The notes below the pieces were generated by a model. The model was given only the letters and a program-made list of their open reading frames with translations, did not search any database and was not told the DNA's origin. Both the position numbers and the translations under genes were made by a program. From positions 1,302,001-1,366,000 of the forward strand of contig NZ_CP072941.1 in NCBI RefSeq assembly GCF_018069625.1: a stretch of DNA of 64,000 nucleotides, in the 5' to 3' direction. The first letter of the stretch is position 1. Each line of letters begins with the position of its first letter. Shown in pieces: positions 40,901-55,029 of the stretch. This DNA is from Streptomyces yatensis. Its GTDB lineage: Bacteria; Actinomycetota; Actinomycetes; Streptomycetales; Streptomycetaceae.

Positions 40901-43900
40901 CGACCGCCTCGTCGACCAGCCCGCCGCCGGACCACGCGCCCCAGGCCACGGAGGTGGCGGGGAGGCCCTGGGCGCGGCGGGCGTGGGCGAGCGCGTCGAG
41001 GAAGGCGTTGGCGGCCGCGTAACTGCCCTGGCCGGGGCCGCCGAGCGTGCCCGCGAAGGAGGAGAAGAGCACGAAGGCGGACAGCTCGCGGTCGCGGGTG
41101 AGCTCATGCAGATGGAGTGCCGCGTCCACCTTCGGGCGCAGCACCCCCTCGGCGCGCTCGGGGGTGAGGGTGTCGAGCACCCCGTCGTCCAGGACGCCCG
41201 CGGTGTGGACGACCGCGTCGAGCGGGGCCTCGTCCTCGTCCAGCGTGGCGAGGAGGGCGGCCAGTGCGTCGCGGTCGGCGGCGTCGCACGCGGCCACGGT
41301 CACCCGGGCGCCCGACTCCCGCAGCTCAGCGGCGAGTTCGGCCGCGCCGGGGGCGTCGGGGCCGCGGCGGCTGGTGAGCACCAGGTGTTCGGCGCCGCCC
41401 CGGGCCAGCCAGTGCGCCACATGGGCGCCCAGGCCGCCGGTGCCGCCGGTCACCAGCACGGTGCCGCGCGGCCGCCACGGCGCGGTGGCGTCGGTCAGCG
41501 CCGCCGAGGCCCTGACCAGCCTGCGCCCGTGGACACCGGAGGCGCGCACCGCCACCTGGTCCTCGCCGGTCGTCCGGCCCGCGAGCACACCGCACAGCCG
41601 CGCGATGGCGCGGTCGTCGAGGGTGCCGGGCAGATCGACCAGACCGCCCCGGCGCCGCGGGTACTCCGCGGCGGCGATCCGGCCCAGGCCCCAGGTGAGG
41701 GCCTGCAGCGGATGGTCCAGCACGTCCGCGCGGCCCACGGACACCGCCCCGCGCGTGGCGTACCAGATGGGGACGTCGGCGCCGGTGTCGCCGAGCGCCT
41801 GCAGCAGGGCGAGGTTGAGGGCGAGGCCGAGCGGCTGCGCCGTGCCCGCCGCGTACGGCTCCTCGGCGAGCGCGAGGAGCGAGAGCACCGCGGTCGGGGG
41901 CGCGTCCACGGTCGGGGGCGTGTCCACGGTCGAGGGCGTGTCCGCCGTGGCCTCGCCGAGCCTGCGGGCGAGCGCCTCGCGCACGGCGTCCGCCTCGGTC
42001 AGCTCCACCAGCCGGACCTGGGCGCCGCGTTCCCGCAGCGCCTCCGCCACGCGCGGGCCTTCCGGCGCTCCGGCGGGCGCGGCGATCAGCCAGGTGGCAC
42101 CGGCCGACGACCGGTCGTGCGGGGCGGTGAGCGCGTCGCCCAGGGGCTTCCAGGTGATGTGGTAGCGCCAGGAGTCGAGTGCCGACCGCTCGCGGCGCGC
42201 CCGGCGCCATGAGGCGAGCGCCGGGACCACCATGGCCAGGGACGACTCCTCGGCGTCCACCTCCAGCGCGGTGGCCAGCGCCGCCAGGTCCTCGCGCTCC
42301 ACGGCGTCCCAGAAGTCCGCGTCCACCGCGTCGCCCTCGGCGGTGGGTGCGGAGGAGCCCTCGAGCCAGTAGCGCTGTCGCTGGAAGGCATACGTCGGCA
42401 ACTGCACCACGGACGCGCCCAGCCCGGCGAACACCGCGGCCCAGTCGACGGCCACCCCACGGACGAACGCCTCGCCCAGCGAGGCCAGGAACCGCTCCGG
42501 ACCACCCTCGTCACGCCGCAGCGACCCCACCACCACCGCGTCCTCGACGGTCGCCTGCAACGGCATCGTCAGCACCGGATGGGGACTCATTTCGAGGAAC
42601 GTCCCGAACCCGGCCGCCGACAGAGCCCGCACCGCCGACTCCAGCTCCACCGTCTCCCGCAGATTGGTGTACCAGTACCCGGCGTCGAGCCCGGTGGTGT
42701 CGATGGTGTCGCCGGTGACCGTCGAGCAGAACGGCACCTCGGCACGGCGCGGGGCAATCGGGGCCAGGACATCGAGGAGTTCGGCACGCAGCTCTTCCAC
42801 CTGGGCCGAGTGGGACGCGTAGTCCACCGGGATCAGCTTCGCCCGTACGTCCTCGCCCTCACACTCCGCCTGGAGTTCACGCAGCGCCTCCGGGTCACCG
42901 GACACCACGATCGAACCGGGCCCGTTCACCGCCGCCACCGAGATACGGCCCTCCCAAGCCGTGATCCGCTCACGCACCCGATCGGCGCTCTCGGCGACGG
43001 ACATCATGCCGCCACGTCCCGCCAGGCCACGCCCGATGGCCTGCGACCGCAACGCCACCACCCGCGCCCCGTCCTCCAACGACAACCCACCCGCCACCAC
43101 CGCCGCCGCGATCTCACCCTGCGAATGCCCCACCACCGCCGCAGGCACCACCCCACACGACCGCCACACCTCCGCCAACGACACCATCACCGCCCACAAC
43201 GCCGGCTGCACCACATCCACCCGCCCCAACCCCGGACCCCCACCCCGCAACACCTCCACCAACGACCACTCCACAAACCCGGCCAGAGCGGCCTCACACT
43301 CCGCGATCCGCCCCGCGAACACCGGCGACGCATCCAGCAACTCCACCGCCATCCCCACCCACTGCGACCCCTGCCCCGGAAACACGAACACCGGACGGGC
43401 GTCGGTCGCCGGCACTCCCTCGCCGCGCACCACGTGCGGGGACTCGCCGCCCGACGCCAGCGCGCCCAGTGCGTCGATCAGTTCGTCACGGTCGCCGCCC
43501 AGGACCAGCGCACGGTGGTCGAAGCGGCCGCGGGTGGTGGCGAGCGAGTGGCCGATGTCGGCGGGCGAGAGGCCGGGGCGCGCGGTCACATGGGTCAGCA
43601 GCCGCTCGGCCTGCGCCCGCAGCCCCGCCGCGCTCTTGGCCGACAGCACCCACGGCACCACTCCCCCGCCCACCGGGGCGGGCCCCTCCGCCACGCTGTC
43701 GGAGGGCTCCTCCTCGGGCGCCTCCTCGATGATGGTGTGCACATTGGTGCCACTGGCCCCGAAGGCCGAGATACCGGCCCGGCGGGGCTCCTCGCCGCGC
43801 GGCCACTCCCTGGCCTCGGTCAGCAGCTCCACCGCCCCCGCCGGCCAGTCGATCCGCGAGGAGCGCTCCTCGGCGTGGAGTGTCTTGGGCAGCAGGCCGT

Positions 43901-55029: not shown

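What the first reader, a model, noticed from the sequence alone, without database searches (positions are those of the whole stretch)
43035..53310. A 360-bp AT block repeated almost perfectly in three genes, with foreign-looking codon usage
Blocks 47976-48335 and 52951-53310 are identical in my hand alignment, and 43035-43394 differs at three bases, although the flanking AT sequence is clearly diverged. Inside the block, Leu is often ttg and Val, Ala and Gly end in G or T; outside, C-ending codons dominate. This is the pattern of very recent gene conversion spreading a segment acquired from another PKS. It covers the AT nucleophile region (GHSQGE), so it may mark a natural AT recombination hotspot.
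Basis: seen in the sequence. Interest (0 to 1): 0.7.

Follow-up and report, generated by a model that had tools for sequence, protein, structure and literature searches.

The report
Self-copying skewed repeats in antibiotic genes
Three modules of one antibiotic-making gene cluster keep overwriting the same stretch of each other's DNA, and the odd base composition of that stretch appears to depend on which way the chromosome is copied through it, which hints at how such repeats arise.

Summary
In detail: 360 bp of three acyltransferase (AT) domains are identical (two copies) or differ at 3 bases. [quoted passage not shown] four regions here meet published criteria. Eight related genomes carry the skewed block at the same three sites. 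Inside it, copies mostly resemble genome-mates (nearest neighbour for 24 of 27 copies); in the KS flank, orthologues (27 of 27). So this is continuing gene conversion between modules, not a recent foreign insert; no donor was found. Beyond the known: skew sign tends to follow replication direction. Of AT cores with 4-fold GC3 skew beyond 0.6, 109 of 111 co-directional ones are G-rich and 30 of 31 head-on ones C-rich. A collinear head-on cluster has mirror-image codons. A 40-AT hold-out did not confirm this, and exceptions exist. I propose that NucS mismatch repair, which rejects only G:G, G:T and T:T mismatches, ratchets G and T onto the lagging-strand template during conversion. That step is inferred. 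The founding GRINS paper could not be read.

The parts
43035..43394 (-). Copy A of the homogenised AT core (PVFVFPGQGSQW...GHSQGE...RSQAI) in PKS gene g2, first module
47976..48335 (-). Copy B of the AT core, in PKS gene g3
52951..53310 (-). Copy C of the AT core, in PKS gene g4; identical to copy B
42311..43480 (-). GRINS region around copy A: mean best identity 0.93, |GC skew| 0.29, |TA skew| 0.31
   Evidence: procedure as printed in PMC9899208, with ungapped identity
47261..48370 (-). GRINS region around copy B: identity 0.94, skews 0.29 and 0.31
52631..53380 (-). GRINS region around copy C: identity 0.91, skews 0.35 and 0.40
57701..58270 (-). Fourth, weaker GRINS in a GHSVG/HAFH-type AT of g5: identity 0.83, skews 0.26 and 0.25
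43113..43130 (-). GHSQGE nucleophile motif, copy A
48054..48071 (-). GHSQGE nucleophile motif, copy B
53029..53046 (-). GHSQGE nucleophile motif, copy C
34908..45101 (-). PKS gene g2, two modules (AT motifs GHSQG/YASH and GHSVG/HAFH)
45126..50036 (-). PKS gene g3, one module KS-AT-KR-ACP
50098..55227 (-). PKS gene g4, one module KS-AT-KR-ACP; longest open frame, its true start is probably further inside because it overlaps g5
28631..34867 (-). PKS gene g1, last module with C-terminal thioesterase domain
55029..63998 (-). PKS gene g5, cut by the window end

Best explanation
The three blocks are the cores of three GRINS in an elaiophylin-type polyketide synthase cluster. Shown: the AT core is a site of repeated, continuing gene conversion among modules of the same cluster, so the copies evolve together within each genome while their flanks evolve apart. 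Shown in the discovery sample, with exceptions and without confirmation in a small hold-out: the strong skew goes with homogenisation and its sign follows the direction of the replication fork, so that the strand serving as lagging-strand template is rich in G and T. Inferred: conversion itself is biased and builds the skew. My leading candidate is strand-specific heteroduplex rejection by the actinobacterial mismatch nuclease NucS, given separately as the novel case.
For: GRINS criteria met by four regions. Concerted evolution in nine genomes: block within-genome identity 0.943 (27 pairs) against 0.894 between genomes for the same module (108 pairs) and 0.893 for different modules (216 pairs); KS flank 0.764 against 0.928; nearest neighbour is a genome-mate for 24 of 27 block copies and a same-module orthologue for 27 of 27 KS and 26 of 26 KR-side sequences. 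Private variants already present in two or three modules: 38 of 89 in the block, 26 of 83 in the next 360 bp, 5 of 103 in the KS flank, 4 of 85 on the KR side. In the window, B and C share one private base change (Ala to Val) seen in no other copy. Own genome, 98 AT domains: core identity between clusters never exceeds 0.83, while within clusters it reaches 1.00; homogenisation and leading-strand skew correlate for AT cores (rho 0.82) and for KS stretches (rho 0.44), n = 95. Polarity, 343 AT cores of 47 genomes (95 of them from the own genome): mean 4-fold GC3 skew +0.37 co-directional against -0.52 head-on, KS flanks no difference (p 0.36); clusters with |delta| at least 0.2: co-directional 49 plus / 2 minus, head-on 2 plus / 14 minus, 13 of 80 below threshold; families linked at over 85% identity 26/2 and 2/7, p 1e-4; the co-directional mean exceeds the head-on mean in 14 of 14 genomes with both. 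At |skew| of at least 0.6: 109/2 and 1/30. Collinear head-on cluster in G371 with homogenised C/A-rich cores.
Against: The hold-out of 40 ATs from 16 other genomes, drawn by protein profile, did not confirm polarity: 4-fold skew +0.12 against +0.03, p 0.62; only 9 of 40 were strongly skewed (6 co-directional, all plus; 3 head-on, also plus, all in G195); by cluster 4/2 co-directional and 1/1 head-on passed the 0.2 threshold, of 13 and 9. Cluster exceptions in the discovery sample: G031, G089, G082, G204; in G031 and G089 the head-on mean is still positive and in G387 it is zero. At a threshold of 0.4, 17 of 172 co-directional cores are minus. The first replichore rule gave a weaker table (46/4 and 5/12); the linear rule was adopted after seeing that result, because Streptomyces chromosomes are linear. 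The discovery sample was drawn largely with one G/T-rich and one C/A-rich query, so clusters are related. Part of the AT correlation is built in, because a skewed composition raises identity by itself. Parsimony counts of changes are prone to common-to-rare bias.
Confidence: 0.83

Rival explanations
1. A segment with foreign codon usage was recently acquired from another PKS and then spread to three modules.
For: The block differs sharply in codon usage from its flanks.
Against: The 27 orthologous copies in nine genomes are skewed there too; no donor nearer than 83% in the genome or 87% outside this cluster type in 392 genomes (the G174 and G381 hits at 95% and 88% align to the elaiophylin-type cluster over 1.8 kb); skewed cores are found in unrelated clusters, with the sign mostly following orientation.
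Confidence: 0.03
2. Strand-asymmetric mutation during replication (the usual leading-strand G/T excess), perhaps stronger in converted tracts, made the skew, and conversion only spread it.
For: Sign follows fork direction in the discovery sample. In nucS-mutant lines of S. ambofaciens, transitions on the right-replichore top strand run A>G over T>C (1150 to 412) and C>T over G>A (715 to 274), the same polarity as GRINS (PMC11109965, passages). A preprint suggests that NucS repair is reduced during recombination in a mycobacterium (PMC13061034, passages).
Against: KS flanks of the same genes show no orientation effect (p 0.36). Transitions cannot turn C into G, yet 4-fold sites go from about half C to 77% G with 16% T. 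Genome-private changes in the block run toward C/A 32 to 12, single-copy ones 23 to 5 (parsimony bias possible). In the toy model unbiased conversion leaves composition unchanged.
Confidence: 0.18
3. Selection on codons or transcript (translation pace, mRNA structure) keeps the AT core recoded.
For: The skew sits in one protein region.
Against: Strongly skewed head-on cores use opposite codons for the same protein region: two-fold purine codons end in A in 0.70 against 0.02, two-fold pyrimidine codons in T in 0.02 against 0.57.
Confidence: 0.04
4. G-quadruplexes or R-loops on the G-rich coding strand cause recombination and hence the repeats.
For: At least one G-quadruplex motif starts inside the block in 25 of 27 copies.
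Against: Motif number is not above synonymous codon shuffles (26 of 27 copies tested; the frameshifted one left out; lowest P 0.094). A head-on family with C-rich coding strands is homogenised just as well (0.98-1.00 in five genomes), although the other strand is then G-rich.
Confidence: 0.08
5. Assembly artefact: copies collapsed onto one another.
For: Draft assemblies of three relatives break at these repeats.
Against: Single-contig genome; copy A differs at 3 bases; relatives carry distinct, genome-specific versions.
Confidence: 0.01

Closest known systems
[quoted passage not shown] 2021, not held; definitions from passages of PMC10394414 and PMC9899208)
   Same: Repeated PKS coding segments with strong GC and TA skew, linked to gene conversion, most common in actinobacteria.
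   Different: The passages I read do not discuss the sign of the skew or replication direction. Here the sign follows fork direction in most strongly skewed cores of the discovery sample.
GRINS of the azalomycin F PKS (PMC9899208, passages)
   Same: Nearly identical GRINS in two modules, read as conversion or duplication.
   Different: Here orthologous clusters of nine genomes separate conversion from duplication directly.
Concerted evolution by gene conversion in bacterial repeats (recalled as a general kind)
   Same: Copies alike within and unlike between genomes.
   Different: Coupled to strand-oriented base composition.

Membership tests
GRINS | At least 500 bp with over 80% identity to another region of the same PKS | tested here: met
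   42311-43480, 47261-48370, 52631-53380, 57701-58270; 12 regions pass identity and length
[quoted passage not shown]
   0.29/0.31, 0.29/0.31, 0.35/0.40, 0.26/0.25 (the last at the edge of the 25% figure); of the other 8 regions 7 fail, one narrowly (38201-38740, 0.14/0.21), and 31811-32350 is borderline (0.16/0.15)
GRINS | About 1 kb long | tested here: met
   1170, 1110, 750 and 570 bp; the last two are short for the description
GRINS | Gene conversion between copies | tested here: met
   for the three copies A, B, C
Elaiophylin (ela) cluster | Five PKS genes with eight modules (PMC6864862 and PMC6691879, passages) | tested here: met
   five genes, eight AT domains
Elaiophylin (ela) cluster | Free-standing TE after the last module | tested here: inconclusive
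   A TE domain is found, at the C-terminus of g1
Elaiophylin (ela) cluster | Sequence identity to the reference cluster | not tested
   No reference ela record was compared; relatives include S. violaceusniger NBRC 13459 and S. iranensis

The most novel reading that the evidence does not exclude
GRINS are the footprint of NucS-biased, replication-oriented gene conversion. A donor strand from a sister module anneals to the exposed lagging-strand template. NucS, which these genomes carry while MutS was not found, cuts keto:keto mismatches (G:G, G:T, T:T) and lets amino ones pass. So on the lagging-strand template G or T always beats C or A, and with enough conversion the tract loses nearly all C and A at silent sites; in head-on genes the coding strand loses G and T instead. 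This accounts for the sign, the keto/amino nature, the mirror image, the link to homogenisation and the reported actinobacterial bias of GRINS; it also predicts no bias inside each base class, which I did not test.
Probability: 0.33. Interest if true: 0.88.

Novelty: new member of a known kind. Interest (0 to 1): 0.6.

Why it matters
The element is a GRINS, already described. As I recall its founding abstract, the mechanism of GRINS was called unknown. A polarity rule tied to fork direction, with mirror-image codons in a collinear head-on cluster, would turn that into a question testable by a nucS deletion and by flipping one reporter. It would also mean that codon usage in antibiotic genes can be set by DNA repair rather than by selection or origin, and it would tell engineers in which orientation and with which base differences PKS modules will or will not recombine.

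Tried and rejected
Foreign donor: searched own genome, 61 genomes including the own, 392 genomes of the genus including the own (two candidates scored per genome); none nearer than 87% outside this cluster type. G-quadruplex trigger: motifs present but no more than synonymous shuffles give. Skew against homogenisation among the 27 ela-type copies alone: weak (rho 0.38, p 0.053). Direction of new changes: multi-copy changes lean less to C/A than single-copy ones (7:9 against 5:23, toward G/T first), Fisher p 0.085; the same test in a head-on family was uninformative (one copy 3:1, both copies 9:8). The toy model does not fit composition and identity at once: with C near 0.10 its copies are only 0.82 alike, and at 0.95 alike C falls to 0.02, while the window has C 0.07 and copies 0.99-1.00 alike. 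Non-Streptomyces test of polarity: the family sampled had 14 genomes, mostly drafts, so it was not pursued. An attempt to add hold-out clusters by hand to the family table mixed two criteria and is not used; one search counts them by one. Rows dropped: G374 (3 ATs) from the polarity table because its origin lies at 21% of the contig; the frameshifted S. violaceusniger copy B from the shuffle test; three of 98 ATs from the correlation. A first codon alignment was distorted by that frameshifted copy and was replaced by nucleotide alignments. Three further loci from the C-rich query: two strong C-rich ones lie head-on (G294, G342), a weaker one (4-fold skew -0.44, KS flank -0.41) is co-directional (G141). 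Changes after checking: the number of hold-out genomes (16), symmetric thresholds in place of uneven ones, and the strand bias in PMC11109965 now counted for the mutation rival; for that reason I moved the rival from 0.15 to 0.18, the novel case from 0.35 to 0.33 and the main explanation from 0.85 to 0.83.

Full report
WHAT IS THERE. The three 360-bp blocks exist as described: B (47976-48335) and C (52951-53310) are identical, A (43035-43394) differs from both at three bases, and exact identity stops within 8 bases of the stated ends. They encode the N-terminal 120 residues of three AT domains, through the GHSQGE motif, in PKS genes on the - strand. The second motif, YASH, lies outside, so the block does not carry it. 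That GHSQG/YASH marks methylmalonyl-type ATs is recalled. On the + strand GC skew falls to about -0.5 to -0.6 and AT skew rises to about +0.5 to +0.65 over the blocks. On the coding strand third positions are 81-82% G, 11-12% T, 7% C and 0% A.

WHAT IT IS. By the procedure printed in PMC9899208 (passages), applied with ungapped identity, 12 regions of the window's PKS pass identity and length and four pass both skews: the three around A, B and C and a fourth at 57701-58270. They also reach the 25% figure given in PMC10394414 (passages). These are GRINS. The founding paper is not held. The cluster has five PKS genes and eight AT domains, as described for elaiophylin (PMC6864862, PMC6691879, passages). 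No reference elaiophylin record was compared.

CONVERSION. Orthologous clusters were found in named genomes and unnamed ones. Nine genomes with all three modules, this one included, were compared, 27 copies. KS flank: 0.764 between modules of a genome, 0.928 between orthologues; nearest neighbour same module in 27 of 27. Block: 0.943 within a genome, 0.894 between orthologues, 0.893 between different modules of different genomes; nearest neighbour in the same genome in 24 of 27, same module in 2 of 27. The next 360 bp are intermediate: same genome 8, same module 19 of 27. KR side: same module in 26 of 26 (one copy ran off its contig). Variants private to one genome and present in two or three of its modules: 38 of 89 in the block, 26 of 83 in the next 360 bp (13 of them in one genome), 5 of 103 in the KS flank, 4 of 85 on the KR side. 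The skew is present in all 27 copies, weakest in the two C copies (NEAU-Y11 and G093) that are also least homogenised with their genome-mates. The block is therefore an old feature kept uniform by conversion, not newly imported.

WHOLE-GENOME VIEW. Of 109 AT-like matches in the genome, 98 were examined. No pair of cores in different clusters exceeds 0.83, while within clusters identity reaches 1.00; the nearest core in a cluster is usually of the same AT motif class. With the sign taken on the leading strand, skew rises with homogenisation: mean 4-fold GC3 skew -0.05 for cores under 0.80 identity (13) and 0.79 for cores at 0.95 or more (25); KS stretches go from -0.09 (13) to 0.75 (2) over the same bins (95 of the 98 used). 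Part of this is built in, since a skewed composition raises identity by chance.

POLARITY. In the own genome dnaA lies at 5.23 of 10.36 Mb. The PKS groups with G/T-rich cores run with the fork. The one group that runs against it (five ATs at 1.051-1.072 Mb, + strand) has cores homogenised up to 1.00 but with GC skew of -0.18 to -0.26. I tested this in other genomes. AT cores were found by a profile in the own PKS clusters, in the orthologous clusters and in stretches around hits to a G/T-rich core, a C/A-rich core or a docking sequence. Of 346 ATs in 48 genomes, 343 in 47 genomes were used, 95 of them own. Linear rule: 283 co-directional, mean 4-fold skew +0.373; 60 head-on, mean -0.515; p 4.5e-23; TA skew 0.358 against 0.059; KS flanks -0.011 against -0.069, p 0.36. 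At |skew| of at least 0.6: co-directional 109 plus, 2 minus; head-on 1 plus, 30 minus; at 0.4: 155/17 and 1/40. Clusters with |delta| at least 0.2: 49/2 and 2/14, 13 of 80 below threshold; after linking related clusters (46 families) 26/2 and 2/7, p 1e-4. The co-directional mean exceeds the head-on mean in all 14 genomes with both, though in G031 and G089 the head-on mean is still positive and in G387 zero. Under the circular rule used first the cluster table was 46/4 and 5/12. Cluster exceptions: G031, G089, G082, G204.

HOLD-OUT. Forty ATs from 16 other complete genomes were picked by protein profile and orientation only. There was no significant difference (p 0.62). Only nine were strongly skewed: six co-directional, all plus, and three head-on, also plus, all in G195. 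By cluster, 4 plus and 2 minus of 13 co-directional and 1 plus and 1 minus of 9 head-on passed the 0.2 threshold. This set is poor in GRINS; it does not confirm the rule, and G195 counts against it. Two further strongly C-rich loci, found with the C-rich query and oriented afterwards, lie head-on (G294, G342).

A NATURAL FLIP. G371 has a collinear cluster (g1 66%, g2 66%, g3 72%, g4 67% protein identity, same gene order; the g5 region was not fetched) on the - strand at 7.10-7.14 Mb with dnaA at 4.02 Mb, so head-on. Its AT cores are homogenised (0.99 between two of three GHSQG cores, 0.89 with the third; 1.00 between two GHSIG cores). The two GHSIG cores have third positions C 0.87, A 0.12, G 0.02, T 0, close to a mirror of the window's G 0.81, T 0.12, C 0.07, A 0; the GHSQG cores have C 0.68-0.77. 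Pooled strong cores show the same mirror: 105 co-directional A 0.006 C 0.07 G 0.77 T 0.16; 23 head-on A 0.08 C 0.85 G 0.06 T 0.007. Two-fold codons, not used in the selection, agree: A-ending purine codons 0.02 against 0.70, T-ending pyrimidine codons 0.57 against 0.02. These two pools were chosen by orientation and sign together, so they describe the pattern and do not test it.

MECHANISM. Shown: conversion; association of skew with homogenisation; association of sign with fork direction in the discovery sample. Inferred: bias in conversion. New private changes in the block run 32 to 12 toward C/A, so mutation seems to erode the skew, with the caveat that parsimony overcounts common-to-rare changes. 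A NucS domain was found in 9 of 9 genomes searched and MutS_V in 0 of 9. In M. smegmatis NucS repairs G-G, G-T and T-T mismatches in vivo and all others tested escape (PMC11551767, passages); the S. ambofaciens enzyme cuts G/T but not A/C in vitro (PMC11109965, passages); NucS lowers recombination between diverged sequences in M. smegmatis (PMC5290159, passages). If the donor strand anneals to the lagging-strand template, every donor C or A facing a recipient G or T makes a keto:keto mismatch and is rejected, while the reverse passes; G and T accumulate on that strand. That strand is the coding strand in co-directional genes. A toy model with three copies gave C 0.10, G 0.84, T 0.05, A 0.01 at ten conversions per mutation, and no change when unbiased; it did not fit composition and copy identity at the same time. 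Against it: GRINS are also reported in cyanobacteria and firmicutes (PMC10394414), which as I recall have MutS; a preprint suggests that NucS repair is reduced during recombination in a mycobacterium (PMC13061034, passages); PMC11551767 reports NucS repair to be independent of homologous recombination (abstract passage); replication errors seen without NucS have the same strand polarity (PMC11109965), which favours the mutation rival, although transitions cannot turn C into G; and the choice of annealing strand is fitted to the observed sign.

LITERATURE. No held paper combines GRINS, leading strand and polyketide (0 papers). PKS, GC skew, leading strand and Streptomyces gave three genome papers by listing, not opened. 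NucS with gene conversion and polyketide gave one paper, on another subject; NucS with biased gene conversion gave four, of which passages of one were read. Three held papers name GRINS in full; passages of all three were read. The founding paper may already discuss replication direction; I could not check.

Noticed in passing
L061, L062, L065 (S. rugosispiralis, S. sabulosicollis, S. antioxidans): Draft contigs of 4.0-4.3 kb begin at the edge of block A and end in or near the A/B repeat before block B: these repeats seem to break draft assemblies of this cluster.
   Followed up: partly
L063, block B copy: S. violaceusniger NBRC 13459 copy B lacks one base and is frameshifted; sequencing error or real not known.
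   Followed up: no
L127, L066: In G093 and NEAU-Y11 the C-module copy has escaped homogenisation (0.82-0.84) and has about half the skew.
   Followed up: partly
window 32122-32319, 37712-37909, 57230-57427: A repeat patch between modules with 93% and 82% identity to the middle copy; its skew was not measured on its own.
   Followed up: no
G195 6.98-7.03 Mb (L324-L326, L337): Head-on cluster with G-rich coding strand, in part also in its KS flanks: an exception to the polarity rule.
   Followed up: no
G031 158953, G089 7357372, G082 7789756, G204 557010: Other clusters whose skew change has the sign opposite to the rule; recent inversion or acquisition not tested.
   Followed up: no
G232 41-58 kb and 9.02-9.04 Mb: AT matches appear in pairs with identical scores and frame lengths at both chromosome ends, as if carried on terminal inverted repeats.
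   Followed up: no
own genome, 98 ATs: Why the AT core rather than the KS is the main conversion site remains unexplained.
   Followed up: no
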